From IMG/VR virus record IMGVR_UViG_3300033148_003679, positions 1 through 64,000 of that record: DNA of 64,000 nucleotides; one strand, 5' to 3'. The stretch's first letter is position 1. Each line of letters starts with the position of its first letter. Under the pieces are notes generated by a model that was not told the origin of the DNA, did not search any database, and saw only the letters and a program-made list of their open reading frames with translations. Positions 4,701-62,662 of the stretch are shown in pieces. A program made the position numbers and the translations under genes. The stretch is from a virus.

Positions 4701-4701
4701 T

Positions 4702-5352: not shown

Positions 5353-5364
5353 AACATTTTTCTC

Positions 5365-11472: not shown

Positions 11473-11508
11473 TTTAGTGTAACCGTATTTTCTTTTCCTG
11501 TTTGCCTG

Positions 11509-12312
11509 TCATGTAGCATTTCTATGTCGAAACCGATTATCTCTAAACTCCCAATCCGGTTTTAGTAAAGTATCTTGTCGTAATACCCCATATTCATGAA
11601 GTATCTGTGCAATTCTGTCTGGATCAGTAATGTCAGCTTCAGAAGTTAGTTGCCGGGGCGAATAACTCGTAGGATTTTTACTCTGCTTTAACTCTCTGGT
11701 ATTCGTACCGTGTTTAACAACACACACCTTGTTTTTGTCCGGTAACATTTCAGTACCAAGTAGTCTGCGCATAGGAGCGGCATGTGCTACAAATGCCGCC
11801 TGTTTAAACTTATCCCAGTCTTTGTACATATCTTTAGAAAAAATACGAGTTGTAAACGGTGTTGGCAACTTACGTATATGTTTACCAATAAACCCGTAGT
11901 TTCTATCCCATAAAAGGTTCTGACCGAAACTAAACGACGCGACTTTATCAACACGTTTTTTACGTTCAGAAAGGTCTCGTATAGTCTGGAGTGTAGACAA
12001 ATGGTATAGATCGTCGGAATCCAGACGTGAAATTGTAAGCCAATCATCGTCTATTTCATAAGTACGTTGTTCACCTCTATCGAATATCAGTTCTACTTTC
12101 CTGTGCCAAGGTAGCTGTGCAACATAGTCTCTGTTATTTTTGTCGCATACAACCCATAAATCGAAATCGTCATGGTACTGGTTTAGAATCGAACGTAACG
12201 TGAATTTCTGGAACAAATCGAATCGAATATCTATCCATTGATGACTTTTTATTATAGGGCCGCCGTGTATATATCGGTCAATCGCAAACAAGATCATTAT
12301 TACATGTCGCAT
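11509..12312 (-). CDS. Putative rhamnosyltransferase-like glycosyltransferase
   Basis: 267 aa. It resembles the putative rhamnosyl transferase family (PF11316-like): an N-terminal helix and WIDIRFDLFQKFTLRSIL, then a DLWVVCDKNN strand, then the donor-binding RLDSDDLYHL. This DSDD is the best support. The remaining C-terminal 130 residues have no motif I recognise. It lies between the MptE-like fusion and the CgeB-like gene and is part of the cassette. Confidence 0.68.
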   Translation of the reverse strand: MRHVIMILFAIDRYIHGGPIIKSHQWIDIRFDLFQKFTLRSILNQYHDDFDLWVVCDKNNRDYVAQLPWHRKVELIFDRGEQRTYEIDDDWLTISRLDSDDLYHLSTLQTIRDLSERKKRVDKVASFSFGQNLLWDRNYGFIGKHIRKLPTPFTTRIFSKDMYKDWDKFKQAAFVAHAAPMRRLLGTEMLPDKNKVCVVKHGTNTRELKQSKNPTSYSPRQLTSEADITDPDRIAQILHEYGVLRQDTLLKPDWEFRDNRFRHRNAT

Positions 12313-12319
12313 TTTATTT

Positions 12320-13606
12320 CTATCTACTCCTTTTTAACCGTCTACTAGCTTGAAAGTGTTTAACAACAGGATTCGACACCAGACTATCCATAATTTTGTC
12401 AATAGCAAGGTATTCTGGCGGTAACCCTACAGTATTTACTCTGTTTCTGCTCTCTAAAACGTCTCGTAACGCAAGCTGGTTGCCGATATTGGGATATTCT
12501 TTATCTTTTTCGACCCATTGTTTAACAATTTCGATAGATTCTGCTTGTCTGTTACCAAAAAATACCGTACCGGTTCCAGGTTCGTCTGGCTTCTGTTTTC
12601 TATGGGGAATGTCACTAGCATTTAACCAATAAACAGCTACAGATGGTCTGGAAAGGCACAATCTATCGAACATCTCTGGATATTGGACAATTTCAGCGTC
12701 AGAATCCAGCCATACAACCGGTTTATCATGGAATTTGTATAACATTTCGAGTATAAACCGAGTTTTCTCCTTTATATTAGCAGACCACGAACCTTTACTA
12801 GGCCGACCTTCGATATAATGTTCCAGTCCAAACAGGTGTAACGATTTATGTAACCGTCCGATCTCGTTCTCATATCCATTATCAATAGTATAATACGATA
12901 TTACCATAGGTCGCTCGATCCTGTCAATTCTTTCCTGTTCCCATGTCGAACGCCGGAACGATTCCAGTGCACTGTCAGGATTGAGATTGACAATTTCCGC
13001 CCGTTTGTTTATATCTTCTTCTACAACTTTAAACGCTTGTCTAAATTTACAATACACTTTGTCTTTTTGTGGCCATTTATATCCAGAATGGAAATTAGCT
13101 TGTGCCCCGTCTTTACCAACCATATCGAATCCCAACAAATAGATAGGGGACGCGCCCAGACATAGAGCGAGGTTGATCGCGCCAAACCCCGTATTTTCTC
13201 CGTTTCCGAGACCGTCTTTTAACGAACGCGGCATACACCTATTTTTCTGGTGCCGTTTTATAGTATAACAGTATGGAGTCGGTGCAGGAGTTTTTCCGCT
13301 CTGGAGGTATAGACAATATCCGCCAAAAGCTCTTATTTTGTTACGAGCAGCAACAGATCCTTCTATATCTTTAGGGTCGATTGCGCCTTTATCAGTCTCA
13401 ATAAAAACACGATCATCCTGTGCAATTATAATAGACGGGTCACAGTATTCATGAGCACGGTTAATAGCAATAACAAGTTCACCGTTTAGTTTCGACCAGT
13501 CAAAAGTTTTAAGAGACAGACCGCCACCTACTACAAAACAACGGTGCCCAGTCCATATACCGTCTTTTACATAGTCGATAAACTGAACGCTTTTTCCCTT
13601 ATCCAT
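12320..13606 (-). CDS. MptE-like (DUF115) domain fused to a glycosyltransferase
   Basis: 428 aa, two domains. Residues 1-210 resemble the MptE/DUF115 Rossmann-like group: FVVGGGLSLKTFDWSKLNG, then INRAHEYCDPS, and later NLALCLGASPIYLLGFDM with an aromatic cap. Residues 215-428 form a second domain with MVISYYTIDNGY, a long helix and PVVWLDSDAEIVQYPE, where DSD looks like a GT-A metal site. In bacteria MptE-like domains occur with flagellin or glycan modification. Two steps of one pathway on one chain is a reasonable inference. It is the first gene of the cassette, 25 bases from the head-tail adaptor gene. Confidence 0.68.
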   Translation of the reverse strand: MDKGKSVQFIDYVKDGIWTGHRCFVVGGGLSLKTFDWSKLNGELVIAINRAHEYCDPSIIIAQDDRVFIETDKGAIDPKDIEGSVAARNKIRAFGGYCLYLQSGKTPAPTPYCYTIKRHQKNRCMPRSLKDGLGNGENTGFGAINLALCLGASPIYLLGFDMVGKDGAQANFHSGYKWPQKDKVYCKFRQAFKVVEEDINKRAEIVNLNPDSALESFRRSTWEQERIDRIERPMVISYYTIDNGYENEIGRLHKSLHLFGLEHYIEGRPSKGSWSANIKEKTRFILEMLYKFHDKPVVWLDSDAEIVQYPEMFDRLCLSRPSVAVYWLNASDIPHRKQKPDEPGTGTVFFGNRQAESIEIVKQWVEKDKEYPNIGNQLALRDVLESRNRVNTVGLPPEYLAIDKIMDSLVSNPVVKHFQASRRLKRSR

Positions 13607-14366: not shown

Positions 14367-15062
14367 TTATTTACGGAAAAACACGTCAATATACCCTATA
14401 CTAGTTGCACCAGCGTTTGAAACTGCAAGGTCTAACGGGCCAATCCAACATGGAAAAACGTCAGGTGCATATGTTAGACATATACTACCGGCATCAACGG
14501 TACCGTCCGGACTCAAATATATACCATTTGTATAACTGGCATTTAATTCCAAAGTAGTAGGCGAAAAGTATACTGAATCGTCACATATGTATAATTCTGC
14601 AATTATCGTATCGCCGGTCGAACCTGTTAGACTATCGTATACGGTTACAATTCCGGCGGTTGTAGCAGGTTTTGTAATACATACTGTATTAAGTTTACCT
14701 TTTCCACGCCGGATCAATGTACCGCCGTCTAATACATCCCATCGTGTATACATATTACAAACAGCAGGTACACGGAAATGTTTACTAACACTGTTTGACA
14801 AATCCGTACCCGCTCCGCCCAACACATCGAATCCTAACGAATCTGTTAGAGTTATATCGTAACCGTCGGTAGGTTGAGTACCGGAATCTGTATTAGGTCG
14901 AAATGATACCAGTTCAACTGTACCGGCAATACCACCGATATTTGCCAACGTACAGTTACCGTCACCGTCTGACAACCATGTAATAGTCCGACACGCCAAA
15001 TTACCTAACCGCGGATTTCCGCTACTTCGACTTGTAATTGTTACTGTACCAGTATCGGCCAT
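14367..15062 (-). CDS. Structural protein, probable capsid decoration or fibre
   Basis: 231 aa and unusually rich in Thr, Gly, Ser and Asp. It is beta-rich with no transmembrane segment and no recognised motif. It starts behind a clean AGGAGG site. Its position between the major capsid protein and the adaptor, and its composition, suggest an exposed head protein. If so, it is a possible acceptor for the sugars made by the adjacent cassette (inference). Confidence 0.5.
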   Translation of the reverse strand: MADTGTVTITSRSSGNPRLGNLACRTITWLSDGDGNCTLANIGGIAGTVELVSFRPNTDSGTQPTDGYDITLTDSLGFDVLGGAGTDLSNSVSKHFRVPAVCNMYTRWDVLDGGTLIRRGKGKLNTVCITKPATTAGIVTVYDSLTGSTGDTIIAELYICDDSVYFSPTTLELNASYTNGIYLSPDGTVDAGSICLTYAPDVFPCWIGPLDLAVSNAGATSIGYIDVFFRK

Positions 15063-15097
15063 AACTTTAACCCTCCTGGGTCACTCATAAATGACCG

Positions 15098-15736
15098 TTA
15101 ATCAGCCTTTGAACTGCGGATAACCATGTCCAATGTTTTAGAAGCGTCCGGGGTACCGGCAATAACATATGTATTATACGTTGCACTGATTGTACCGGCA
15201 TCGGTCGCATTGTTAAAGTTATGGACGAGAACGTCAGCGGATTTGCCAATTTTACATCCAAGACCATAAGTTTTTGCAAACCCGAAAGTATATGCATCGT
15301 TAGTATCACAGTCTTCGCCATCACCCGTCACAACAGTAAACGATAGAGTTGTAAGAGACGAATATGCGTGTAGACACGTTGCGGTCCATGTATCTACCCC
15401 ACCTGTAAACGATAATGTTGCGGCTATATCCGTATCGTTTTCAGTCCGGCCAAACTGATCTGTACCAACTACGGTCATTGTAACAGACGTCCACGAATCG
15501 TCGCCACTAGCTTTATCGTTCGTAACATATAATACGGGACATACCGGATGGTTAGGCGCAACAGATTTTGTCATACTTGCAGCAGCTAGTGTAAACGTGG
15601 TTGTTGCCGACAGAGCTGTAGACGTTTTGAACCAGTCTACATCAGCTGCCAACGGCGCAAAATGAAATTCTGTGTTTACCTGATCGCGCCATATTTTTCT
15701 GAATCGCGGATCCCAGATTCTTGGTCCTGTAGGCAT
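15098..15736 (-). CDS. Structural protein downstream of the major capsid protein, probable decoration
   Basis: 212 aa. The N-terminal 20 residues are basic and aromatic (MPTGPRIWDPRFRKIWRDQV); the rest is Thr/Ala/Ser/Asp-rich beta sequence with a long Thr-Ala segment. Nothing beyond a likely beta-sandwich can be claimed. It shares operon and composition with the next gene, so the two may be relatives or partners. A role on the outside of the capsid is likely but not shown. Confidence 0.5.
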   Translation of the reverse strand: MPTGPRIWDPRFRKIWRDQVNTEFHFAPLAADVDWFKTSTALSATTTFTLAAASMTKSVAPNHPVCPVLYVTNDKASGDDSWTSVTMTVVGTDQFGRTENDTDIAATLSFTGGVDTWTATCLHAYSSLTTLSFTVVTGDGEDCDTNDAYTFGFAKTYGLGCKIGKSADVLVHNFNNATDAGTISATYNTYVIAGTPDASKTLDMVIRSSKAD

Positions 15737-26167: not shown

Positions 26168-26242
26168 TTAGCCGAGTCTCGTTCGTAATTCGTTCAACCA
26201 CTTGCGAAACGTCTGATCTGCTATAGTAGTAGGTTTAGTCAT
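26168..26242 (-). CDS. 24-residue peptide coupled between methyltransferase and reductase
   Basis: MTKPTTIADQTFRKWLNELR and four more residues. The ATG overlaps the methyltransferase stop (ATGA) and the stop lies inside the reductase ribosome site (TAAAGGAGAA). This layout is typical of a coupling peptide, or a small real gene. Chance cannot be excluded. Confidence 0.4.
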   Translation of the reverse strand: MTKPTTIADQTFRKWLNELRTRLG

Positions 26243-27594
26243 AGATCGAGTACCCCTTGCCGGGACCAATGTTCAATCCGCTGCCGCGCGATCTCACAAT
26301 ACTGTTCGTCCTTCTCGATCCCAATAAACGAACGGTTCTCCAGATAAGCGGCAATACCAGTTGTACCGCTACCCATGAAAGGATCGAGTACCGTGCCGCC
26401 TGTTGGCATACGGGTCAATCGGCACAGATATCGCATAAGAGGGACATTTTTCACTGTGGGATGCCCGTTACGATGGCATCTTACTTTTTGACCTTTATCA
26501 TTTAGATGGTGCGTTGAATCCAGTTGGCCACATTTCAAACATGGCAGATGACCTATAAGTCCTTGTTCTCGTTCAGACCGAGACGCTTTACTAGTATAGC
26601 ATATTCGTTTAAAGTAGCGGGACACACCACCAATGCCCGGATACCGTGTAGTTACTACTCCTCCACCGATATTGATCGCGCTACCCTTGTTCTTCCCACC
26701 ACCGGTTTTATAATTACCTTCAGTTGTAATTTCACTCTGCTCGTCCACCATCTCGGCAGCCGTCTCGTCCAAGATTAGATTCGCAGGCCAGCGACCTTGT
26801 ACTGTCTTTTCTGCTGCCTCCATCCCAATTTTATTCCATCCATCATCATTTAAGTTTCTATTCTTAGTCAATCCTGGCTGGTATGTATGCTCTTCCTTCC
26901 CTATCCGCGCCCCGTCAATCCATAACCCGGCAACTCCCCACTTTTCGGCATTCTGCGCGAACGTACCGTCCAGCGGTTTCATCGCTAACACAATTGGCTC
27001 GTATGCAGGTTTGAGTGCCGTCCCATACCCGTCCCACTGCTTAGCGAGATCAGTTGCAGGAGCGGTGATGTCAACACCATGACCAAAAGATTCTGATGTA
27101 CCATAACCACTGTTTTGACTATGTATTGTATAATTTGTGTCACGGCCTTGTTCTCGAAATTGGATTGACTGTGTTTTGCCAATTACTTCCCTCTCAACCC
27201 CTGCTGCCTTATCAATCGCCTTGCTAATATCATGCGATTTCGGAAAGCCTGACCCGTACACCCAAAGTAACGGCCCGTACAGAAATCCCATACAATCCCG
27301 TATCTCCCACCCTGCATCTTCGATAGCGCACGTCAACCGATGATATGTACGGGTACCGCCAAACGCTATAAGCATCGCACCTGGTTTGGCTACGCGGAGA
27401 GCTTCGTGCCATAGTTCAACATTTGCGGCAGGATTGTCCTTTGGTTTATCAAACTCTTTTGCCATGAACCCTATCATATACGGCGGATCGCAGATTATCG
27501 TGTCTACACTATTCTCCGGCATCTCGCGCATAACGGTCAAACAGTCATCGTGATACAGGATCGTCTTCCCATACTCATAATACGGTTCAGCCAT
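26239..27594 (-). CDS. Site-specific DNA methyltransferase (N6-adenine or N4-cytosine)
   Basis: 451 aa. Catalytic motif DPPYMIGFMAKEFD near residue 37 and the SAM motif LDPFMGSGTTGIAAYLENRS near the C-terminus: this order is that of beta-class methyltransferases. A large central insertion carries two Cys-x2-Cys/His groups (CLKCGQLDSTHH, RCHRNGHP), perhaps a zinc module for target recognition. No restriction endonuclease is adjacent, so it is an orphan enzyme, probably protecting phage DNA. It ends by overlapping the 24-residue peptide. Confidence 0.86.
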   Translation of the reverse strand: MAEPYYEYGKTILYHDDCLTVMREMPENSVDTIICDPPYMIGFMAKEFDKPKDNPAANVELWHEALRVAKPGAMLIAFGGTRTYHRLTCAIEDAGWEIRDCMGFLYGPLLWVYGSGFPKSHDISKAIDKAAGVEREVIGKTQSIQFREQGRDTNYTIHSQNSGYGTSESFGHGVDITAPATDLAKQWDGYGTALKPAYEPIVLAMKPLDGTFAQNAEKWGVAGLWIDGARIGKEEHTYQPGLTKNRNLNDDGWNKIGMEAAEKTVQGRWPANLILDETAAEMVDEQSEITTEGNYKTGGGKNKGSAINIGGGVVTTRYPGIGGVSRYFKRICYTSKASRSEREQGLIGHLPCLKCGQLDSTHHLNDKGQKVRCHRNGHPTVKNVPLMRYLCRLTRMPTGGTVLDPFMGSGTTGIAAYLENRSFIGIEKDEQYCEIARQRIEHWSRQGVLDL

Positions 27595-27720
27595 AATTCA
27601 AATATTACCTTCTATCATATAGCTAGCTAGCACTCAACTATCAACACAATCATTATATATGTCGAACCAGTTTACGCATCGTTGTTGCTATATCCTCCTA
27701 ACAAGAACTAACAAGAATTA

Positions 27721-27776
27721 CCCCGCTCAGAGCTTTTTATGGCAAGCCGGACCTTTTTACTATAAATCGAGCGGGG
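27721..27776 (-). other. Long hairpin with CCCCGCTC / GAGCGGGG arms
   Basis: Eight-base perfect arms enclose about 40 bases. On the minus strand the structure lies in the leader of the methyltransferase gene, after the 27786-28094 gene. An AGGAGG site and a 16-codon frame (MRKLVRHIMIVLIVEC) follow it. It may be a processing site, an attenuator or a terminator; the lack of a following T-run makes simple termination less likely. Confidence 0.45.
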
Positions 27777-27785
27777 TAACAGACT

Positions 27786-29050: not shown

Positions 29051-29220
29051 TTTCTGATTATTCCTCTCAAATATCGTCTTGTTTCTCTGCTCTTTTAACA
29101 AGAAAAATAGTAGCAAGGCGATGCTCGATGCCGTACACAGAAAGGAGGAGGAAAGAGTAGAGGGACATCACATAACCTTGCTACTATAATTATTTCCTAT
29201 GTACTACCTACGCATGATCT

Positions 29221-29250
29221 ATTATACCATAAACAAGAGCAAAAAGTCAA
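29221..29250 (-). promoter_or_regulatory. Leftward promoter for 29.05-26 kb genes
   Basis: Minus strand TTGACT (29245-29250), 18-base spacer, TATAAT (29221-29226) with TG before the -10. The leader continues with GCGTAGGTAGTACATAGG. Nearly identical to the promoter at 31.22 kb. Confidence 0.75.
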
Positions 29251-29417
29251 ATTACAACTATACCCGCACCCGCCACTATTACCGCTCTTTCCTGCGCACT
29301 CCTTGATAACTTCTTGCCATTGTTATCATTTGCCGCTGGGGCGAACAATCCTGTAGAAAATTTTTGGCCTATACAAAAAGCTGACAGAACAGTGAAAAAA
29401 GAGGTGGGGGTGAGTGA

Positions 29418-29471
29418 TATACTAACCTTATACTAATTTCATACTAATTCATACTAATTTAGTATATCCAA
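29418..29471. repeat. Tandem tactaat direct repeat, left copy
   Basis: Several 10-11 base units of the kind CATACTAATT in tandem, ending AGTATATCCAA. A second, 43-base copy at 29981-30023 matches it except for one unit. They flank the lone gene at 29546-29950. Confidence 0.75.
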
Positions 29472-29545
29472 GTACTGCTGGCAAAACTGTCAACCATTAA
29501 TATTGTCCTCTTCGGGGTGTGACAAAAGAATAAGCAAAAGGATAA

Positions 29546-29950
29546 CTATTCGCTCCGGAACTCCAGTGTTACAATCAGTTTGCCGTATGCTCTCTCGATA
29601 TTGTCGAGCCACCACTCATCTTCAAACTGTTCCATGCACTCATTGGTCTGTAAGGGATCCATGTCAGATAGAATTGAAACGACAAGCTGTGCAAATCCGC
29701 CGGACTCGGGATCTGTGATGATATAGAGAAAGGCTTCCGATATTGAAATGTATTTGCCAGCATTCCGAAAGATGTCACCTAGTAAGACTAACAGGAACCG
29801 ATTTTTTTCAATAAACGAGACTACAGCGTCGCGTTCGCGGAATATGAAACATGTTTCAAGTGAGTCTATCGTGGATGCAGTAGCTTTTTGTCGAAGGAAA
29901 TGAGGAATTGCAACATTCTTAAAGTGATAATGCCGGTTGAAAAGGAGCAT
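29546..29950 (-). CDS. Hypothetical protein in a repeat-bordered cassette
   Basis: 134 aa, starting MLLFNRHYHFKNVAIPHFLR. It has a hydrophobic helical middle (RFLLVLLGDIFRNAGKYISI) and an acidic C-terminal third (EQFEDEWWLDN). I do not recognise a family. The gene is isolated and bordered on both sides by the same direct repeat, which suggests gain by recombination. A membrane-associated or helical soluble protein are both possible. Confidence 0.55.
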   Translation of the reverse strand: MLLFNRHYHFKNVAIPHFLRQKATASTIDSLETCFIFRERDAVVSFIEKNRFLLVLLGDIFRNAGKYISISEAFLYIITDPESGGFAQLVVSILSDMDPLQTNECMEQFEDEWWLDNIERAYGKLIVTLEFRSE

Positions 29951-29980
29951 CGAGTTTACCGCCTTTTGTTGTATTCTCTT

Positions 29981-30023
29981 TATACTAACCTTACACTAAT
30001 TCATACTAATTTAATATATCCAA
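29981..30023. repeat. Tandem tactaat direct repeat, right copy
   Basis: 43 bases, TATACTAACC then ACTAATTCATACTAATTT and ATATATCCAA; partner of the 29418-29471 copy. It could be the scar of an insertion, or operator/iteron-like sites. Confidence 0.75.
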
Positions 30024-30046
30024 ACTTATTTAAACTCCTTTGTGGT

Positions 30047-30076
30047 CTGACTTTTTAATTTTGTTTATGGTATAAT
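30047..30076 (+). promoter_or_regulatory. Rightward promoter pointing into the D12 methyltransferase 3' end
   Basis: CTGACT, 18-base spacer, TATAAT, then CATACGTAGATAGTACACAGG. It is antisense to the methyltransferase gene and forms, with the promoter at 31219-31248, an inverted repeat of about 53 bases around that gene. Confidence 0.6.
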
Positions 30077-30107
30077 AGATCATACGTAGATAGTACACAG
30101 GCAAATT

Positions 30108-31196
30108 TCAGGATCCCTTTTCAAGTAAAAACAGGAACTCTTTATTAGGTTTCTGTACATCTCGTAACCATTGATTAGTCCATTTCATGCCTGCCATCAC
30201 ATTCTTCTTGTAGTCGAGTTCCACGACTTCCAGAACCTTGCCGTTACTTTGCAGAATATCGTTGAGTTCATTAGCTGTTGCTCGACCACCAGAACTGTAG
30301 GACAGGATGATCCACCGGGCTTGAGTTGTTTTAATCAATCTCTCGATTGCCTCGACTGCAATGAAACGCCCGCTGACGCTACGTCGAAAGTTCTCAAATA
30401 CAGATACAGCCACCTTGTCCGACGTGTCCTTGCGACGATTCGCCTTGCCGAACAAAACAGGCTTGTCGAAGAGGCAGATGCTCGTCCAGACGTGGTAGTA
30501 GGATGCATACCGGACTCGCGAAGGTGGCATCTTCTCGTTGTTCGATCCGTAGGGCGGGTCGAAGTAGGCAAGGTCTACGGACACACGTGGGACGAGATCA
30601 AAGATGTCACTTCGGAACACTTGGTGTTCTCGTGATGCCTTAAAGACATCCGGCACCTTGAGCATCAGTTCCTTGTATGAACGAGCAGACCAGTCCTTGA
30701 GATACGAAACGAAATGGCCAAGGGTATTATCCACCCGATCCAGTGCCAATATGAGACTGGTAAGAGCCACGGCCCGATCAACACCATCAAGATCGAGTGA
30801 GTCTATCTCCTGCCGGATAGCATCCAGTTTTCGCGTATTGTGTACTTGCCAAGGTTTCTTGAGACCGTCCTGCTGGACTGCACAGCCCCCGTTGGGTTTT
30901 CCACCGTAGTGCTCTGTGAACCAACCATCAACGGGGGATACGGCATTAAGATGAGCGATTAACTCCTGATACTGCCAGGGTTGTTTCTGATTGAGAAGAT
31001 AGCAGGTGCCAAAGACTTCCGACCAAACCGCAAGATCGTTGCACAGAACCCTATATCCAGACTTTGCTAAAGCCTGTGATACACGCGTAGTCCCAGAGAA
31101 TCCATCCAGTATCGTGCGCGCATTAACACGCTTAACAAGTTGAAGTATCTGCGGAATTAGCTTCGCTTTTGAACCTATATACTTAATACTTTCCAT
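30108..31196 (-). CDS. D12-class adenine-N6 DNA methyltransferase
   Basis: 362 aa. Starts MESIKYIGSKAKLIPQI (the YIGSK element that opens this class), then the SAM motif ILDGFSGTTRVSQALAKSGY and the catalytic FDPPYGSNN near residue 210. Length and order fit D12 enzymes such as those of type II systems. Its base composition is more GC-rich than its neighbours, suggesting transfer. No endonuclease is adjacent. The ATG lies directly at the end of the leader box, so the leader is very short. Confidence 0.88.
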   Translation of the reverse strand: MESIKYIGSKAKLIPQILQLVKRVNARTILDGFSGTTRVSQALAKSGYRVLCNDLAVWSEVFGTCYLLNQKQPWQYQELIAHLNAVSPVDGWFTEHYGGKPNGGCAVQQDGLKKPWQVHNTRKLDAIRQEIDSLDLDGVDRAVALTSLILALDRVDNTLGHFVSYLKDWSARSYKELMLKVPDVFKASREHQVFRSDIFDLVPRVSVDLAYFDPPYGSNNEKMPPSRVRYASYYHVWTSICLFDKPVLFGKANRRKDTSDKVAVSVFENFRRSVSGRFIAVEAIERLIKTTQARWIILSYSSGGRATANELNDILQSNGKVLEVVELDYKKNVMAGMKWTNQWLRDVQKPNKEFLFLLEKGS

Positions 31197-31218
31197 GTGT
31201 ACTACCTGCGCATGATCT

Positions 31219-31248
31219 ATTATACCATAAACAGAATCAAAAAGTCAA
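31219..31248 (-). promoter_or_regulatory. Leftward promoter of the D12 methyltransferase
   Basis: Minus strand TTGACT, 18-base spacer, TATAAT, then GATCATGCGCAGGTAGTACAC and the ATG. The leader is only about 15 bases. Confidence 0.75.
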
Positions 31249-31434
31249 AAACGCACTACAAATAAAACACTGCATATAAGACACTGCATACTGTAAATAA
31301 AGCACTTTATAAACAAGGTACTACCTGCAAATAAAGCACTATAACGCAATACGAAAAAGAATGCGGAGCGTCAAGTGGCTGGGGTTTGGGATTTGAGATG
31401 AGAATATGGGAGAGGGTGAATGGTCACCCCCCCC

Positions 31435-32804: not shown

Positions 32805-32870
32805 ACAGTGACTATAGTTATAGTTTACAACTATGGTCATAGTTCACGACTATGATTATAGTTCATACTT
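32805..32870. promoter_or_regulatory. Palindromic operator cluster, copy 1
   Basis: Units such as ACTATAGTTATAGT, AACTATGGTCATAGTT and ACTATGATTATAGT, each a two-fold palindrome of 7-base arms around two bases. Cluster sits between the first two early operons; two further units recur at 34150-34190. Confidence 0.6.
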
Positions 32871-33014
32871 GGAGAATGAAGTAAAGAGAGGACACGAAAA
32901 CGTAATTTGGTTGCAGAAACGTAATTCGATTACGAGAATGTAATCTGGTTACGAGAATGTAATCTGCGCCTTGTGTGCCTTGTGCGTGTGCCTTGTGCTG
33001 CACGTAAACTCAAT

Positions 33015-41506: not shown

Positions 41507-42164
41507 GACGAGTGTAGAGTGTTATGTGATACATTGCAGTAGGGTGTGGTGAGGTCGGATAGGGTCGTGTCGGGTGAGGTAAGGTATGGTGCAATGGGGT
41601 AAGGTCAGGTGAGGTAAGGTGCGGTAGGGATTGGTCTTTCTTCAATAAAGGAATGGTATTAGATAAAAGGAACGAAGTAAGCATTAGAATTTGATAGAGT
41701 AATGTCAAGTAGAGTCGGGTCTGGTCAGGTGCGGTGATGCAAGGTGAGGTGCGGTCGGGTTAAGTACGGTGCGGTGTGGTCATGTCGGGTACGGTCTGGT
41801 GCGGTGCGGTCGGATCTGGTGCGGTAAGATAAGGTGAGGTAAGGTTACTTTTTTTCTAGTAAAGGAATGATAGGCAGTAAAGGAGTGCAAATTAGAGTGT
41901 AACATTCAATATGGTGAGGTATGATAGGGTGGAGCGGGGTCTGGTCGGGTCCGGTCAGGTATGGTGTGGTATGGCGAGGTCCGGTATGGTCAGGTGAGGT
42001 ATGGTACGGTGCGGTGGGGTAGGGTTTGGAACACAAACTCACAATGACCATGATAAAATGCGATGGCAAGTACAAAGAAAGGAGAACGCTTATAAGACAA
42101 CGAATGTGGTGTGGTTGGTTTTGGGAATAGAAGAACGAAAAATAAGTAGAAAGGTAGGTAGCCA
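41507..42164 (+). repeat. GGTNN arrays 1-3 with spacers
   Basis: Three arrays (41541-41637, 41712-41847, 41913-42029) of a strict 5-base GGTNN repeat in phase for up to about 27 units. Between them are conserved spacers with (T)TTTCTT then AAGGAATG or AAAGGAGTGCAA. Reading frames across the arrays are artefacts of the repeat. No gene is claimed. Confidence 0.85.
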
Positions 42165-42770
42165 ATGTATCAATCTGTGAATGTAAAAATAAAGGGTGTG
42201 GCTCCAGTTATGTTTCACAACCCGCAACTTGCAAATCCTCTTAACTCGTTTACACAGGGAATCAAGAAAATCTCTGCAAAACGAAACAAGACAGAAGAAG
42301 ATTTTAAAGAGATGTCCAGACTGGAATTTTTGGGCGGTCTCTATGTAGACGACAAAGGTAAGGTAATCGTTCCGGCAGAAATGCTGGAAGCGTCTCTACT
42401 GTCTGGTGCCAAGAAGAAGAGACGTGGTGCTAAGTTTAAGGCGGCGGTTTTGGTGCCGGAATCAGCTCGTTTGATTTATGACGGGCCGAAAAATATCGAG
42501 AAGTTGGGACGGGACTCTCAGTTTGTCGATATTCGGAACGTTACAATTCAGCGTAATACAATTATGAGAACTCGACCTGTTTTTAAGACATGGCAAGCTG
42601 AGTTTATGATAATGTTTGATTCTACCCTAGTTAATAAGAACGAGGTGGAAGAAGCATTGAACGATGCTGGGCAGCAGTGCGGGATTGGAGATTATCGGCC
42701 AAGATACGGACGGTTTATGGTAGAAAGTTTCGATGTACTTGGCCCTGCAAACGAAGCTGTTACGGTATAG
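42165..42770 (+). CDS. Conserved phage protein of early regions
   Basis: 201 aa. The pattern IKGVAPVMFHNPQLANPLN at the N-terminus, EFLGGLYVDDKGKVIVPAEM, MRTRPVFKTWQAEFMI, and CGIGDYRPRYGRFMVESF at the end is found in many phages. The function is unknown to me. It is flanked by GGTNN arrays on both sides, with its own GTAGGTAGCC start region. Confidence 0.7.
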   Translation: MYQSVNVKIKGVAPVMFHNPQLANPLNSFTQGIKKISAKRNKTEEDFKEMSRLEFLGGLYVDDKGKVIVPAEMLEASLLSGAKKKRRGAKFKAAVLVPESARLIYDGPKNIEKLGRDSQFVDIRNVTIQRNTIMRTRPVFKTWQAEFMIMFDSTLVNKNEVEEALNDAGQQCGIGDYRPRYGRFMVESFDVLGPANEAVTV

Positions 42771-42784
42771 TTAAACAAGTTTGC

Positions 42785-42832
42785 CTCTGCTCTATTGCGT
42801 GAAAGTTTATAGACAAGCGTAATAGGGCAGAG
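42785..42832 (+). terminator. Strong hairpin after the 42165 gene
   Basis: Arms CTCTGCTCTATTGCG and CGTAATAGGGCAGAG (15 bp with two G-T pairs), 18-base loop. No T-run follows, so it may be a processing or attenuation structure instead of a classic terminator. Confidence 0.5.
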
Positions 42833-42863
42833 ACAAATAAATATAATCACGAGGTAAATACAA

Positions 42864-43340
42864 ATGAGTAAGACGAAAGCTATAGTACAGAGTACTTATG
42901 AAGGTCTCGATTTTACAGAGTTACGAAAAGGTGACATTATTTCGGTAGCTGAACTGGAACGTCTGTTTGGCTTTTCCCGTTCTATGAACGCATATTCTCT
43001 TGCAACCATGCAACTCTGTAATGATATTTCGAGATATTTCAGAAGTATCGGTGAAATTGTAACTGTGTGTACAAGAGATTATGCGATTCATATTCTACGC
43101 GATTCTGAAGCTGCCGAGTATAATGCACTGAAGTTTAAACACGGAATTGACACGGCTGACAGAGCACATGAACGCGCTTTAGCCGTTGATATTGGCAACC
43201 TGAAACAGGAAGAGGTTTTAAGACATGACCGTAAGTTGTATATTCAAGGTCGTATATTACAGAGTATACGGGTAGCAAGAAAGAAAGCATGTCGTGTTGT
43301 AGCACATCATAAGGGTGAAGGGATGTTGGTGTTGGAATAG
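42864..43340 (+). CDS. Hypothetical phage protein
   Basis: 158 aa. N-terminal MSKTKAIVQSTYEGLDFTEL, central helix-turn-helix-like pattern (VAELERLFGFSRSMNAYSL), then basic helices ending with two adjacent His. Ribosome site CACGAGGTAAAT. It lies between array 3 and array 4. Confidence 0.55.
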   Translation: MSKTKAIVQSTYEGLDFTELRKGDIISVAELERLFGFSRSMNAYSLATMQLCNDISRYFRSIGEIVTVCTRDYAIHILRDSEAAEYNALKFKHGIDTADRAHERALAVDIGNLKQEEVLRHDRKLYIQGRILQSIRVARKKACRVVAHHKGEGMLVLE

Positions 43341-44128
43341 ACGTGGGTTTTGTTGAAGTCTAGTAATGCAGGATAAGGTAGGGTGGGGTGCGGTACGGTG
43401 TGGTGCGGTCCGGTCTGGTCTGGTGAGGTAAGGTCGAGTTGGGTCGGGTAGGGTATGGTGCGGTACGGTTTGGTATGGTGATGTTAGGTAGGGTCTGGTT
43501 AGATCGGGCCTGGTGATGTAAGGCAAGGTTGGGTAGGGATAGTCTTTCTTTAAGTAAAGGAGTGCAAAATAAAGTGCAAACAAAAAGTGTTGTCGACTGT
43601 TGTGATATAAGGTCAGATCAGGTGAGATCGGATGAGGTCGGGTGATGTCGGGTGATGTCGGGTTGAGTGAGGTCGGGTATGGTCTGGTTCGGTGCGGTCA
43701 GATCTGGTGAGGTATGGTAGGGTTACTCTTTTTCTAGTAAAGGAGTGCAAGTGAAAAGAGTGTAAAAAACATAATTGCAATGAGATTCAATATGGTGAGG
43801 TGAGGTTTGGTATGGTGAGGTGAGGTCTGGTGAGGTCGGGTGAGGTATGGCTTGGTGGAGTCGGGTCTGGTCGGGTGTGGTGGGGTGGGGTTAGGTAGGG
43901 TATGGTGCGGTTAGGTTCGGTAGGGTTTTTTCCATAAAGGAGTGTAGAATAAAATGCAAACAAAAAGTGTTGTCGATTGTTATTGATATGAGGTCGGATG
44001 GGATTGGGCGCGGTGCGGTCGGGTCGGGTAGGGTTTGGTGGGGTGGGGTGAGGTTTGGTCGGGTAGGGTTTCTCTCTCACATAAACGAATACAAACAAAG
44101 GAGCGAGCAAGTAAGGGAACACAACGTC
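43341..44128 (+). repeat. GGTNN arrays 4-7 with spacers
   Basis: Arrays at 43371-43540, 43611-43734, 43793-43926 and 43991-44069. Two spacers (43541-43610 and 43927-43990) share AAAGGAGTG then a GTG/ATG start and CAAACAAAAAGTGTTGTCGA, giving a tiny frame MQTKSVVDC. No other gene. Confidence 0.85.
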
Positions 44129-44653
44129 ATGGACAATCACTCGGAAATCAAAGAAGGGTACAAAGTGTGCAGAGTTGTCGATGGCAACAAACTGGTCTCG
44201 GCCACATTTTGTGCTGCGGGTGGACAAGTCAGTTACCATGTTGATACATGGACGTATCCGTTAGTTGGTTGTGGGCCATTAACTGTATTTGATTCATGGG
44301 ACAATGCCAAGAACTTTCAGGAACGAGTACCGAAAAATATCGAACGGATTTATAATGTGTCGATGGTGGTGAAAGGATTTTCGTTTCTTGTTATTAGAAG
44401 ATGTTCATATATACTGTCGCTCGAAAATAAAATATGGATTCAGAGTATGTTGTTTCATTATGATCAGTTATATAATAGAGATATATATACACGGGAAGTT
44501 CTTGTAAACGACTTGCCGCCTAGCACTGTACTTGACAATCAGTTATATAATAGAGATATATATATACGGGAAGTTCTTGCAAATGATTTACCGCATGGTA
44601 CTATACTTGCTGACAGAGTTAAGTTGCACAGATTAGATAAAAGGGAAGTGTGA
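44129..44653 (+). CDS. Hypothetical protein with internal tandem duplication
   Basis: 174 aa from ATG 44129; an open frame continues upstream through array 7 but lacks a ribosome site. It shares CGPLTVFD and the following helix with the next gene, so the two are paralogues. Near the end about 24 codons are duplicated (QLYNRDIYTREVLVNDLPP, then QLYNRDIYIREVLANDLPH). Function unknown. Confidence 0.6.
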   Translation: MDNHSEIKEGYKVCRVVDGNKLVSATFCAAGGQVSYHVDTWTYPLVGCGPLTVFDSWDNAKNFQERVPKNIERIYNVSMVVKGFSFLVIRRCSYILSLENKIWIQSMLFHYDQLYNRDIYTREVLVNDLPPSTVLDNQLYNRDIYIREVLANDLPHGTILADRVKLHRLDKREV

Positions 44654-45232: not shown

Positions 45233-45406
45233 ATGTACTTGGCTAAAACAAGTACGGAACGGAAGGGTATGCGGCAAGTGTGTTGATGGACACTGGTAAA
45301 AAGATTTCGAGAAGAGAGAATGTTAGCTCAGTGATAAGAACCGGTATACGTACAATTAAGATATAATCTGGTATGAGCTATAGATTATTTATGCCGCATA
45401 CCCTTC
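45233..45406 (+). ncRNA. Structured leader RNA (candidate cis-regulatory element A)
   Basis: A GTACTTG/CAAGTAC hairpin (45233-45253) is followed by perfect 15-base arms GAAGGGTATGCGGCA (45262-45276) and TGCCGCATACCCTTC (45392-45406) that close a 115-base domain containing an AGTGT/ACACT hairpin. It lies between a promoter and the 45443 start. Not a tRNA. Confidence 0.55.
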
Positions 45407-45442
45407 TATACGTATAGGTGGCACACAGGTAGGGGTAATATA

Positions 45443-46027
45443 ATGAAAAGAAGCCGTCGAGATAAACGGAAACCGGCTGATAGAAAACCTGCACAGAAAA
45501 GGCGGGCTCAAAATCGTAAACGTGCAAAAACCGATCCGTATGGTGTAACCCGTCGTCTAATATATCTCGATCATATAAGTTGGGTACAGGCTGAACGGAT
45601 GGCATATGCAGCGCAACAGTACCTTACGTCACAGTATAGTACAAGTGTTCGGAACATTAGTGCAAGTGCTGTTGTACGTATGGCGTTAGACTTTCTCTTG
45701 GTTACGTATAATGGTGCAACTGATGTAGAGAAAGCCAAGATGTTGAACAAGTTGGGTGAACGAAGGCGAAATTCTAAATCTGTAGATGGAGAAAAAAGCA
45801 GGATGGGTAAAGAACGTTCGACCGAGATAAAGACAGAGAAAATAGATGTGCCAAGAAAAGACGATATAGACCGTGCGATTGAAATAAGCAGAAAAAGGGG
45901 GTTTATGCAAGAAGCTAAAAAAGAGATTAGACGTGACGGAGTAAGGATTAGTCGGCCTATTTCGCCGAATGAAAGCCATAAACGGAAATTTCCGGATTCG
46001 TTTATAAGACAGAAAGATGCAGATTGA
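45443..46027 (+). CDS. Basic protein, possible DNA-binding
   Basis: 194 aa. The first 35 residues are highly basic (MKRSRRDKRKPADRKPAQ), then a helical domain (RLIYLDHISWVQAERMAYAA) of ribbon-helix-helix-like shape, and a charged tail. A role on nucleic acid is likely. The gene follows structured leader A. Confidence 0.58.
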   Translation: MKRSRRDKRKPADRKPAQKRRAQNRKRAKTDPYGVTRRLIYLDHISWVQAERMAYAAQQYLTSQYSTSVRNISASAVVRMALDFLLVTYNGATDVEKAKMLNKLGERRRNSKSVDGEKSRMGKERSTEIKTEKIDVPRKDDIDRAIEISRKRGFMQEAKKEIRRDGVRISRPISPNESHKRKFPDSFIRQKDAD

Positions 46028-46053
46028 CAAACGATACTCTAATATGTTATAAT
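46024..46053 (+). promoter_or_regulatory. Early promoter with leader box and structured leader
   Basis: TTGACA, 18-base spacer, ATGTTATAATAG, then GTAGGTAGTACACAG. Leader continues to 46280. Confidence 0.75.
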
Positions 46054-46097
46054 AGATCGTGCGTAGGTAGTACACAGAAGATGTAAATGGTATACAG

Positions 46098-46253
46098 GAA
46101 CAGAGAATCGTCGCAAACTATTTCTTCTCATCTTCTAATACAAGTCGTCTCGATGCGGGTTAGCGGTTTTGCTCCTTTCCCGCTTGGGAAATGTTTTGTC
46201 CTCCCTTCATTTCCCATATAGCTGCATTTTGACGGCAAGGCGATTCTCTGTTC
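46098..46253 (+). ncRNA. Structured leader RNA (candidate cis-regulatory element B)
   Basis: Perfect 13-base arms GAACAGAGAATCG (46098-46110) and CGATTCTCTGTTC (46241-46253) enclose 130 bases. Inside, GGGAAA (46186-46191) can pair either with TTTCCC (46176-46181) or, as GGGAAATG, with CATTTCCC (46208-46215): a mutually exclusive, switch-like layout. It lies directly upstream of the nuclease start. Confidence 0.6.
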
Positions 46254-46280
46254 TGCTACACTATCATAAAAGAGAGGTAA

Positions 46281-47285
46281 ATGTTCGACATGGAATGTCC
46301 GTATAAAATACCTAGTACAACGAGTTTTTGTCATCATCATATACCAGACGACTCATTTCGGGACGCGCCCGGATTCTGTGCTGCCGGCCATCATTTTTTG
46401 TGTGAAGAAAGAGTTGCGAGTTGTACGTTGGTAATGAGCCAGTCACAAGTTAAAACGTATTATGAATGTAAAATGAAGTATTGGCTTCGGTACATATACG
46501 GGATCAGACGTAAAAAGAGTACACTTTCACCTGCTATAAAGATGGGCGCAATTTGGGACAAGTTTGTAGCGAGCAAATATAATGATATTGAGCTGAACCT
46601 TGAATCGTTATTGAAAGAGTATGCAGTAAAAGATGTTGATAGAGCTAAACTATGTGCGTTAATGGACGCATGGGATTCGTTGGAAATCAAGTTGAAACTT
46701 AACGGGTTCCTGTCATGTCAGGCAGAAGTAGCGCAACGGTTTGACCAGACAGATGGCCGACAGTTAATTGTACGCGGATATGTGGACAGACTTTATGATA
46801 CATGGTTTGCAGAAACTAAACTTACAAAAGATCCGAACAGATATGATAATATATGGGATTTACACAGTCAGATCGGTACATACTTTTTGTTAATGCCGAA
46901 CATTAACGAATGTGTTATGGAGATTACACGGACTCCGCAATTAAAACAAGGTAAACGGGAGACTATAGACGATTATTATAGAAGGATATTCGGAGATATT
47001 ATTGCACGTCCTGGCTTTTATTTTATAGGGTGGGACGCTAACACCCGACAGTTTGGCCGACCGCCATATTATCGGAACGAGATGCGGTTGGAAACGGTTA
47101 AAAACAGGTATAGATGGATAACGCAGGAGATTGCTGAAAGAACAGAACGGGGTACATGGTATTGTGAACAGGGCTATATATGTTCCCCTTATTATAGAGA
47201 TTGTGACTATAAACCTGTATGCGTAATCGGCGGTGTAGGCCATGGAGTAAACGAAGTGTTGTACGAGAGACAGAAAAGGAGATGA
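46281..47285 (+). CDS. PD-(D/E)XK nuclease, RecB/Cas4-like
   Basis: 334 aa. Core SQSQVKTYYECKMKYWLRYI, then IVRGYVDRLYDTWFAETKLT where Asp-Arg and Glu-Thr-Lys are the nuclease triad, then HSQIGTYF. The C-terminus holds a Cys group (GYICSPYYRDCDYKPVC) like the Fe-S/zinc site of RecB/Cas4. The N-terminal 45 residues carry extra Cys/His. It precedes a Sak4-like ATPase, so it fits a recombination/end-processing role. The gene ends AGATGA, overlapping tatA. Confidence 0.78.
   Translation: MFDMECPYKIPSTTSFCHHHIPDDSFRDAPGFCAAGHHFLCEERVASCTLVMSQSQVKTYYECKMKYWLRYIYGIRRKKSTLSPAIKMGAIWDKFVASKYNDIELNLESLLKEYAVKDVDRAKLCALMDAWDSLEIKLKLNGFLSCQAEVAQRFDQTDGRQLIVRGYVDRLYDTWFAETKLTKDPNRYDNIWDLHSQIGTYFLLMPNINECVMEITRTPQLKQGKRETIDDYYRRIFGDIIARPGFYFIGWDANTRQFGRPPYYRNEMRLETVKNRYRWITQEIAERTERGTWYCEQGYICSPYYRDCDYKPVCVIGGVGHGVNEVLYERQKRR
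47248..47270 (+). repeat. 23-bp direct repeat, left copy, flanking the Tat cassette
   Basis: TAAACGAAGTGTTGTACGAG plus three bases, inside the nuclease 3' end; identical copy at 47887-47909. It borders the tatA and Tat-substrate genes. Confidence 0.9.
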
Positions 47286-47488
47286 TAAGAGTGTTTGGAA
47301 TTGGCGTGACAGAACTGTTAATTATTCTTGGTATAATGATTCTAATTTTTGGAGGCAAAAAAATTGCAGGGCTAGGTAAAGGTGTCGGTGAATGTATAAA
47401 AGAGTTTCGGCACGCATTTAAAGATGCAGATGAAGTTACAGTAGAAATTGCAAAGGAAGTTGAACAATGCAGAAAGAAAAAGAGGTAA
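47282..47488 (+). CDS. tatA: TatA-like twin-arginine translocase subunit
   Basis: 68 aa. Starts MIRVFGIGVTELLIILGIMI: a short N-terminus, a polar Glu (E11) at the start of the membrane helix, then LIFGGKKIAGLGKGVGECIK (hinge FGGKK at 23-27 and amphipathic helix) and EFRHAFKD, exactly the TatA/MttA plan. The length and the missing long tail fit TatA/E. The start ATG is inside the nuclease stop (ATGA). It precedes a gene with a Tat signal. It could boost the host Tat export or act alone. Confidence 0.88.
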   Translation: MIRVFGIGVTELLIILGIMILIFGGKKIAGLGKGVGECIKEFRHAFKDADEVTVEIAKEVEQCRKKKR

Positions 47489-47883
47489 GTAGGCGTGGAT
47501 TTTTAGGTGTTGCTGGTAAACTAGCTGGTGCTACGGTTGCTATTAGTACAATTACTAGACCAACCGAAGCTCACGTGAAAGAGTTGGCCGAACACGGATC
47601 GTTAAAAAGTAAAGTTCCGTTAATTGGTACAACGGCAGAAATTGATTTTGTTTCAGAAGATTCGATGATATTAAAACCAACAGATTTTAATGTTGACAGC
47701 TCTGTCCCTATGTGGGATTTATCAAAAGAATCAGTTGTTTTGTTGTTGCCAGATGGCACTACTTTTGATGCCAAACTTCTATGGCATAAATACGTACTCC
47801 CTATAGAAACAAATAAAAGGTTCAACATTTTTAATTTAAGCCTAACATTAAGCGTGTCTGACAAAAGGTATCGAAAAGGTTAG
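47467..47883 (+). CDS. Tat-signal protein (putative exported Tat substrate)
   Basis: 138 aa. The signal has SRRGFLG at residues 8-14 (Tat consensus S-R-R-x-F-L-K), a moderate hydrophobic core (VAGKLAGATVAISTI) and a possible cleavage near TEA-H (residue 35). The 100-residue mature part is beta-rich (IGTTAEIDFVSEDSMILKPT; VVLLLPDGTTFDAKLL) with no family I recognise. It overlaps tatA by 22 bases, so they are a pair. The exported protein is expected to fold before transport. Confidence 0.82.
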   Translation: MQKEKEVSRRGFLGVAGKLAGATVAISTITRPTEAHVKELAEHGSLKSKVPLIGTTAEIDFVSEDSMILKPTDFNVDSSVPMWDLSKESVVLLLPDGTTFDAKLLWHKYVLPIETNKRFNIFNLSLTLSVSDKRYRKG

Positions 47884-50305: not shown

Positions 50306-50423
50306 TATGGGCGGTATAGAAATTCCAGCAAACAAATTAGGTAGTATATAGAAACCACGAATACAGAACATGCTAAACCCCAACTCGTTATAACAGTAAC
50401 CGGAATAGTATATGCCGCCCATA
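50306..50423 (+). ncRNA. Structured leader RNA (candidate cis-regulatory element C)
   Basis: Arms TATGGGCGGTATA (50306-50318) and TATGCCGCCCATA (50411-50423), 13 pairs with one G-T, enclose 92 bases before the 50447 gene. Same layout as elements A and B, without sequence identity. Confidence 0.5.
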
Positions 50424-61415: not shown

Positions 61416-61895
61416 ATGATGCGGTATATCATAACGCAAGCGCATCTTGACGCTGCTCGAAACGCACATGCATGCGAGTCCAGGCTGAACCTATACCATG
61501 CTGGCGACAACCTGTTTGACAAACTGACGTACGACGATGCGGTTTGGATTGAAGATAATTTGCCGGGCAATGCAAAATCGATATTGAATGCTTTCGGCGT
61601 ACCGCTTTACGCTATGGCGCGCGACGGCTGCGGCTACGGCCACGGTTACGGCTACGGCGACGGCAATGGCTATGGCTATGGTTACAGCTCCGGCGACGGT
61701 TACGGCTACGGCTATGGCTATGGCTACGGCGACGGCTCCGGCTCCGGCTCCGGCGACGGTTACGGCTACGGCTATGGCGACGGCTACAGCTCCGGTTCCG
61801 GCTTCGGTTCCGGCTTCGGCCACGGCTCCGGCTCCGGCTACGGCTATGGCGACGGCTATGGCGACGGCTACGGCTATAGCTACTGCGACAATTAA
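61416..61895 (+). CDS. Gly/Tyr-repeat protein, copy 1
   Basis: 159 aa from ATG 61416 behind AAAAAGGAGAG. Residues 1-70 form a helical head (RYIITQAHLDAARNAHACES; LFDKLTYDDAVWIEDNL; ending PLYAMARDG). Residues 70-159 are a low-complexity run of GYG, GDG, GSG units, probably disordered or adhesive. Nearly identical head to the 62297 gene. A dockerin relic follows the stop. Confidence 0.65.
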   Translation: MMRYIITQAHLDAARNAHACESRLNLYHAGDNLFDKLTYDDAVWIEDNLPGNAKSILNAFGVPLYAMARDGCGYGHGYGYGDGNGYGYGYSSGDGYGYGYGYGYGDGSGSGSGDGYGYGYGDGYSSGSGFGSGFGHGSGSGYGYGDGYGDGYGYSYCDN

Positions 61896-61935
61896 CATCG
61901 GGTTTGTGATCAACGCGGTGCCGGGATGGGTATAG
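61896..61935 (+). pseudogene. Dockerin relic 2
   Basis: Just after the copy-1 stop, the +1 frame reads TINIGFVINAVPGWV. ATCAACGCGGT is exact to the dockerin end of the 60482 gene. Lies out of frame with the Gly/Tyr tail. Confidence 0.55.
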
Positions 61936-61994
61936 GCGACACGTTGGATGATAATGTTGTTGGACGAAACAAAACGAACATGAGGAGACAAACG

Positions 61995-62291
61995 ATGACT
62001 AACAAAAAGAGACATGTAATTGTGACCACAGACTCTAGCCGACGAGGGGTATTTTTCGGAACGCTCAAATCGGGTGATGTCGGTAGCCCGGTAGAGTTGA
62101 CAGATGCTCGGATGATCGTCTATTGGTCTGCCGCCACACATGGGGTACTTGGCTTGGCGGCGACAGGCCCGGCAGATGGGTCGAGAGTGGGGCCCAGTGT
62201 ACCACAAATCCGGCTCGATGGTGTAACGGCGATCATCGAGTGTACACCAGAAGCTGTTGCACGATTTGCAAGCGGTGAACTCTGGAGTTGA
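61995..62291 (+). CDS. DUF6948-like conserved phage protein
   Basis: 98 aa from ATG 61995 behind GAGGAGACAAACG. VIVTTDSSRRGVFFGTLKSG, then LTDARMIVYWS and LGLAATGPADGSRVG, then IIECTPEAV. This matches a widespread phage protein whose role is unknown to me. Confidence 0.65.
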   Translation: MTNKKRHVIVTTDSSRRGVFFGTLKSGDVGSPVELTDARMIVYWSAATHGVLGLAATGPADGSRVGPSVPQIRLDGVTAIIECTPEAVARFASGELWS

Positions 62292-62296
62292 AAACG

Positions 62297-62662
62297 ATGA
62301 TGCGATACATCATAACGCAGGCGGATATTGACGCTGCCAGAACAGCACGTGCATGTGAAAATAGACTGAACCTATACCATGTTGGCGACGATCTGTTTGA
62401 CAAGCTGACGTATACAGATGCAGTCTGGATCGAAGATAAATTGCCGGACAGTGCAAAAACGATATTGAATGCTTTTAGCGTACCGCTTTACGCTATGGCG
62501 CGCGACGGCTGCGGCGACGGCTTCGGCTACGGCGACGGCTCCGGCTTCGGCTTCGGCTATGGCTACAGCTCCGGTTCCGGCTTCGGCTCCGGCTTCGGCT
62601 ACGGCTACAGCGACGGTTCTGGCGACGGCTTCGGCCACGGCTACGGCAGCGGCGACAATTAA
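62297..62662 (+). CDS. Gly/Tyr-repeat protein, copy 2
   Basis: 121 aa from ATG 62297, behind CTCTGGAG. The head RYIITQADIDAARTARACEN, then LFDKLTYTDAVWIEDKL, is about four-fifths identical to copy 1. The Gly-rich tail is shorter (about 45 residues) and Phe replaces many Tyr. Tandem duplication with tail divergence. A dockerin relic follows its stop. Confidence 0.65.
   Translation: MMRYIITQADIDAARTARACENRLNLYHVGDDLFDKLTYTDAVWIEDKLPDSAKTILNAFSVPLYAMARDGCGDGFGYGDGSGFGFGYGYSSGSGFGSGFGYGYSDGSGDGFGHGYGSGDN

What the first reader, a model, noticed from the sequence alone, without database searches (positions are those of the whole stretch)
46098..46253. Switch-like structured leader before the nuclease gene
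Seen: perfect 13-bp closing stem over 130 bases and two mutually exclusive hairpins sharing GGGAAATG. It lies between a strong promoter and the start codon. Inference: a phage riboswitch, thermosensor or protein-binding leader controlling the recombination operon, possibly including the Tat pair downstream.
Basis: seen in the sequence. Interest (0 to 1): 0.75.

Follow-up and report, generated by a model that had tools for sequence, protein, structure and literature searches.

The report
Clamped structured leader in phage mRNA
The untranslated front of a phage messenger RNA folds into an unusually stable, clamped structure just before its DNA-recombination genes; it does not look like an on/off switch, more probably it is a processing, stabilising or protein-docking element, and at least three (perhaps four) other genes of the same phage carry a similar clamp.

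Summary
The structure is real. The 13-bp perfect stem over 130 nt extends to 16 bp with G·U pairs (46097-46112/46239-46254). The 156 nt fold at -54.7 kcal/mol (z -5.9, 0/200 shuffles), the strongest leader among 28 gaps of this phage. The interior alone is also structured (z -4.4).

The switch reading is not supported. The "exclusive" hairpin 46176-46191 has probability 0.00 at every transcript length. The ribosome-binding site lies outside the clamp and stays open with or without it (opening cost 0.95 vs 1.4 kcal/mol) and from 15 to 50 °C. No Rfam family matches.

No homologue of the leader or its gene was found in IMG/VR, GenBank phages, plasmids or GTDB genomes, so covariation could not be tested.

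Best guess (0.35): a constitutive cis-acting mRNA processing/stabilising leader, RNase III-type. Main rival (0.25): an autogenous protein operator, T4-gene-32-like. Real but moderate.

The parts
46024..46053 (+). promoter TTGACA-N18-TATAAT with TGn extended -10
   Evidence: 12/12 consensus match
46060..46078 (+). recurrent leader box, copy 1 (TGCGTAGGTAGTACACAGA)
   Evidence: one of 9 strong matches in the genome, all intergenic
46080..46098 (+). recurrent leader box, copy 2 (GATGTAAATGGTATACAGG)
46097..46112 (+). 5' arm of closing clamp P1
   Evidence: 16 bp incl. 2 G·U; 13 bp perfect Watson-Crick
46239..46254 (+). 3' arm of closing clamp P1
46113..46143 (+). 31-nt mostly unpaired pyrimidine-rich stretch on the 5' side
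   Evidence: MFE and centroid
46144..46236 (+). structured interior: helices 46144-46149/46231-46236 and 46152-46156/46224-46228, then a three-way junction with hairpins 46157-46181 and 46182-46222
   Evidence: interior 46113-46238 alone z -4.40, 0/200 shuffles; coordinates
46185..46216 (+).
   Evidence: pair probability 1.00 once transcribed; rival 46176-46191 probability 0.00
46270..46277 (+). Shine-Dalgarno AAGAGAGG, outside the clamp, mostly unpaired
   Evidence: mean unpaired probability 0.82 with P1, 0.64 with P1 blocked
46281..47285 (+). PD-(D/E)XK nuclease gene (PF12705), first gene of the operon
   Evidence: Pfam E 1.3e-8
45261..45407 (+). second clamped leader (16 bp, unrelated sequence) before the gene at 45443; interior not structured
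29107..29187 (-). third clamped leader (13 bp) before the gene starting at 29050 (-)
50306..50423 (+). fourth clamped leader (13 bp with one G·U), between the gene ending at 50247 and the gene at 50447
27717..27780 (-). fifth, weaker clamped leader (13 bp with 2 G·U) upstream of the methylase gene 26239-27594 (-)

Best explanation
The leader is a constitutive cis-acting RNA element. Transcription starts near 46060 (inferred from the promoter). Once the 3' arm is made, the leader closes into a 16-bp clamp that continues into helices 46144-46156/46224-46236, leaving the ribosome-binding site free in a short single-stranded tail (shown by folding computation only). Its most likely job is to set the fate of the operon mRNA: the long, nearly continuous double helix is cut by host RNase III, trimming the leader to about 30 nt before the start codon, and/or shields the mRNA from 5' exonucleolytic decay (inferred). 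Plain clamps in at least three other leaders of the phage would do the same. It is not a metabolite or temperature switch.
For: Fold far beyond chance. Clamps of 13-16 bp in several unrelated leaders, each with 0/50 shuffles reaching the score; in the four best ones the start codon lies 23-57 nt downstream of the clamp. Strand signal: extra pairs at stem edges are G·U on the transcribed strand and none on the other (small numbers). RBS accessible in every computed state. Clamp sequences are unrelated while the architecture recurs, which suits a double-strand reader better than a sequence-specific aptamer. Precedent: RNase III acts in mRNA turnover, and 5' stem-loops stabilise mRNA (PMC3997798 and work cited there).
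Against: No transcript, cleavage or stability data. The clamp lies about 37 nt from the inferred 5' end, not at it. The host is unknown, so its RNases are unknown; the phage itself has no RNase III match. The structured interior (z -4.4), absent from the other clamps tested, is not explained by a simple processing site. Other phages also carry long-loop stems in non-coding DNA (17 of at least 12 bp per 764 kb), so the excess here is only about twofold.
Confidence: 0.35

Rival explanations
1. Autogenous translational operator: a recombination or ssDNA-binding protein of the operon (or another phage protein) binds the folded leader and then covers the free ribosome-binding site, as T4 gp32 does on its own mRNA.
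For: Layout matches: folded element followed by an unstructured RBS segment (T4 layout from PMC535899, and PMC3014915). The operon encodes nucleic-acid-binding proteins (Sak4-like, nuclease). Leader A alone has a structured interior, as a specific binding site would.
Against: First gene is a nuclease, not the binding protein; no UUAAA-type repeats before the start codon in the sequence; the candidate pseudoknot-forming 8-bp pairing 46076-46083/46129-46136 is at chance level (z -1.27 and 0.02).
Confidence: 0.25
2. Riboswitch, attenuator or thermosensor that toggles between exclusive folds.
For: An early hairpin (46070-46143) that holds the clamp's 5' arm in its loop is predicted before the 3' arm is transcribed, probability 0.93-0.99; two overlapping hairpins exist as sequence.
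Against: That early hairpin is no better than shuffles; blocking the clamp changes the RBS opening cost by only 0.45 kcal/mol; the terminator-like hairpin has probability 0.00 and terminator-like sites are at chance number; RBS unpaired 0.68-0.89 from 15 to 50 C while the clamp never melts; no Rfam match.
Confidence: 0.08
3. By-product: inverted repeats left by template switching or slippage in fast-evolving intergenic DNA, with no function.
For: This phage's gaps are full of degenerate repeats; clamp sequences share nothing; a 13-bp stem at 15059-15224 is not kept in the relative L007; interiors of three clamps are unstructured.
Against: Clamps sit between promoter or previous gene and start codon; edge pairs are G·U on the transcribed strand; the interior of leader A is independently structured.
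Confidence: 0.17
4. DNA-level element (single-strand hairpin or cruciform used in replication, recombination or packaging).
For: Both strands fold well; the phage encodes an annealing protein and nucleases.
Against: Several unrelated copies all in 5' leaders; G·U bias to the transcribed strand.
Confidence: 0.08
5. The folded interior is a trans-acting small RNA released from the leader.
For: Interior folds on its own; strong promoter 40 nt upstream.
Against: No convincing terminator after it, no Rfam match, targets unknown.
Confidence: 0.07

Closest known systems
RNase III-processed phage leaders (coliphage T7 early mRNA, lambda N leader, Bacillus phage SP82; from general knowledge)
   Same: long double-stranded element between promoter and start codon, free RBS downstream
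   Different: no cleavage data here; the clamp encloses 126 nt with a three-way junction in leader A; sequence unrelated to any known one
T4/RB69 gene 32 translational operator (PMC535899, PMC3014915)
   Same: folded 5' element followed by an unstructured RBS segment, in a phage recombination/replication transcript
   Different: no pseudoknot above chance, no UUAAA repeats, first gene is a PD-(D/E)XK nuclease
5' stem-loop mRNA stabilisers (work cited in PMC3997798)
   Same: stable 5' structure upstream of an accessible RBS
   Different: not at the extreme 5' end; effect on decay untested
Candidate structured RNAs of human microbiomes (PMC8040213)
   Same: unassigned structured RNA near phage genes
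   Different: those rest on comparative evidence; here no homologue was found to compare

Membership tests
any Rfam family (incl. known riboswitches, T-box, 6S, ribozymes) | covariance-model match at gathering score | tested here: not met
   0 matches in the window; best sub-threshold match near the leader has E 4.3, a snoRNA model outside this leader
riboswitch | aptamer conserved across homologues | not testable with these tools
   no homologous leader found
riboswitch / attenuator | expression platform: alternative fold masks RBS or forms a terminator | tested here: not met
   opening cost 0.95 vs 1.4 kcal/mol; hairpin 46176-46191 probability 0.00; terminators 5 found vs 4.1 expected
RNA thermosensor | RBS paired when cold, freed when warm | tested here: not met
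   SD unpaired 0.68 at 15 C, 0.82 at 37 C, 0.89 at 50 C; clamp intact throughout
T4 gene 32-type operator | folded element upstream of unstructured RBS | tested here: met
T4 gene 32-type operator | pseudoknot | tested here: inconclusive
   crossing 8-bp complement exists but the hairpin is at chance level
T4 gene 32-type operator | bound by the encoded protein | not testable with these tools
   needs a binding assay
RNase III leader site | uninterrupted double helix longer than about one turn near the RBS | tested here: met
   16 bp plus further helices of 6 and 5 bp
RNase III leader site | cleavage in the helix | not testable with these tools
   needs RNA 5'-end mapping
retron ncRNA | a reverse transcriptase gene | tested here: not met
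   no RVT_1 (PF00078) in the 84-kb record

The most novel reading that the evidence does not exclude
A phage-wide post-transcriptional regulon: a shared 19-nt leader box plus leader-specific clamps of free sequence that loop out the insert and bring box and ribosome-binding site together, read by a phage factor that recognises box and duplex rather than clamp sequence, with the nuclease leader carrying an extra folded sensor domain.
Probability: 0.1. Interest if true: 0.65.

Novelty: new member of a known kind. Interest (0 to 1): 0.36.

Why it matters
If confirmed it adds a sequence-novel structured leader to the few known in phages, in front of a recombination operon, and shows one phage using the same clamp architecture with unrelated sequences at several genes. 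That would be a direct test case for how far structure alone, without conserved sequence, is enough for post-transcriptional control. If the clamps are by-products of repeat turnover, it is a warning about calling switches from inverted repeats.

Tried and rejected
Riboswitch, attenuator, thermosensor: no expression platform. Retron: no reverse transcriptase. Phage-encoded RNase III: none. Known RNA family: none. Pseudoknot from the 5' end into the leader: chance level. A sixth clamp at 32617-32550(-) was dropped because it lies inside a plus-strand gene. A 13-bp stem at 15059-15224 was dropped because it is not kept in L007. Anti-Shine-Dalgarno mimics in the loops (CCTCCTTTCT in the 29-kb leader, CCTCCCTT in this one) are each unique in the genome but post hoc. 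Homologue searches for covariation with the nuclease, Sak4, helicase, terminase, two methylases and the box all failed to give the leader. One script timed out and was rerun smaller; two others failed on a coding slip and were rerun.

Full report
Setting. The window is the first 64 kb of an 84,323-base virus record whose ends repeat over 114 bases, so it looks like a complete phage genome. The host is unknown. The leader lies between the gene ending at 46027 and a PD-(D/E)XK nuclease gene at 46281-47285 (Pfam PF12705, E 1.3e-8). Downstream are a TatA-like protein (PF02416, E 1.2e-14), a protein with a twin-arginine-type N-terminus, a small gene and a Sak4-like annealing protein.

The promoter at 46024-46053 matches the consensus at 12 of 12 positions. 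The closing stem has 13 perfect pairs over 130 nt and 16 pairs with G·U at its edges, 46097-46112 with 46239-46254. The 156 nt fold at -54.7 kcal/mol against -32.3 (sd 3.8) for shuffles, z -5.85, 0 of 200. It was the strongest of 186 windows over 28 gaps of this phage. In a sample of 330 non-coding windows from other phage contigs, best of two strands, only one scored lower after refinement (-6.31) and three scored below -5, so this is about a top-1% structure, not a unique one.

Interior. Taken without the clamp, 46113-46238 still folds better than all 200 shuffles (z -4.40). Helices are 46144-46149/46231-46236, 46152-46156/46224-46228, then a three-way junction with hairpins 46157-46181 and 46182-46222.

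No switch. The Shine-Dalgarno sequence 46270-46277 lies outside the clamp. Its mean unpaired probability is 0.82 with the clamp and 0.64 with the clamp's 5' arm blocked; the cost to open 46268-46285 changes from 0.95 to 1.4 kcal/mol. From 15 to 50 °C it stays 0.68-0.89 unpaired while the clamp is intact. Terminator-like sites are at chance number. An early hairpin that presents the clamp's 5' arm in its loop is predicted but is no better than shuffles. Rfam gives nothing.

A recurring architecture. A scan of 44 leader intervals for the best helix enclosing 30-250 nt, G·U allowed, put three leaders far above their own shuffles: this one (z 8.7), 45261-45407 (z 8.1) and 50306-50423 (z 7.4); 27780-27717(-) (z 5.3) and 29187-29107(-) (z 3.1) follow, all with 0 of 50 shuffles reaching the score. 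One more hit, 32617-32550(-), lies inside a plus-strand gene and was dropped. The clamps share no obvious sequence. Their interiors, where tested (45.3, 29.1 and 50.3 kb), are not more structured than shuffles (z 0.50, -0.44, -0.17), so leader A is special in having both clamp and folded interior. At the edges of the five stems the extra pairs are G·U on the transcribed strand (2, 1, 1, 1 and 2), while the antisense search of A, B, D and E gains none; for C the antisense search found a different stem. This hints at RNA-level selection, but numbers are small and the leader at 50.3 kb was itself found by a sense-strand fold. As a sober control, 764 kb of other phage contigs hold 17 non-coding perfect stems of at least 12 bp with 30-250 nt loops, about 1.9 per 84 kb, against 4 here.

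A shared box. A 19-nt motif, TRYGTAGRTAGTAYACAGG, has 9 strong matches, all in or at the edge of intergenic leaders, two of them in this leader (46060-46078, 46080-46098); the best score in null genomes was 17.9 bits against 22.7-31.2 for the nine. All but one (30083+) point the same way as the next gene. In leaders without a clamp it mostly lies within a few tens of nt of a start codon; in the leaders at 46, 29 and 50 kb the clamp lies between box and start. That a clamp loops out an insert and restores proximity is an idea, not a result. In the relative L008 the two boxes at 23.7 kb are only partly kept.

Homologues. None was found for the nuclease, its leader or its neighbours in IMG/VR, GenBank phages, plasmids or GTDB genomes; these searches see mainly close relatives. 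Relatives L007 and L008 (about 82-85% identical) cover only 12-26 kb.

Interpretation. I favour a constitutive processing or stabilising leader (0.35): long helix, open RBS, architecture without sequence conservation. The autogenous operator (0.25) explains the structured interior better and resembles the T4 gene 32 layout (PMC535899, PMC3014915), but its pseudoknot and repeats are not seen. A non-functional by-product (0.17) is plausible in a genome full of degenerate intergenic repeats. All functional steps are inference; only the folding statistics and positions are shown.

Noticed in passing
window 41754-44069: Long mostly non-coding arrays of degenerate GGTNN pentamers (periods 5, 10, 15, 20, 25) between genes: fixed GGT with two variable bases.
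   Followed up: no
window 29190-31249: The D12-class adenine methylase gene (30108-31196, -) is flanked by inverted copies of the same promoter plus box (58 nt, 88%), one driving the gene and one antisense to its end; each carries GATC right after the -10.
   Followed up: partly
window 29139-29148 (-): CCTCCTTTCT, resembling the 3' end of 16S rRNA, occurs once in the genome, in the loop of the clamped leader at 29.1 kb.
   Followed up: partly
window 47282-47883: TatA-like gene followed by a gene whose product starts with a twin-arginine-type signal (SRRGFLGVAG), inside a phage recombination operon.
   Followed up: no
window 32811-32966: Intergenic tandem 19-nt repeats (ACTATGGTTATAGTTCACA and GTAATCCGATTACGAGAAT) that fold well on both strands.
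   Followed up: no
window 61624-62656: Hexamer ACGGCT-type repeat arrays.
   Followed up: no
window 44463-44609: 75-bp tandem duplication, 87% alike.
   Followed up: no
window 15059-15224: 13-bp inverted repeat that would pair the start codon region of the gene at 15062 (-); not kept in relative L007, so probably chance.
   Followed up: yes
window 3981-13606: Cluster of genes on the minus strand that look like glycosyltransferases, a radical-SAM-type protein and a methyltransferase, judged from the translations only.
   Followed up: no
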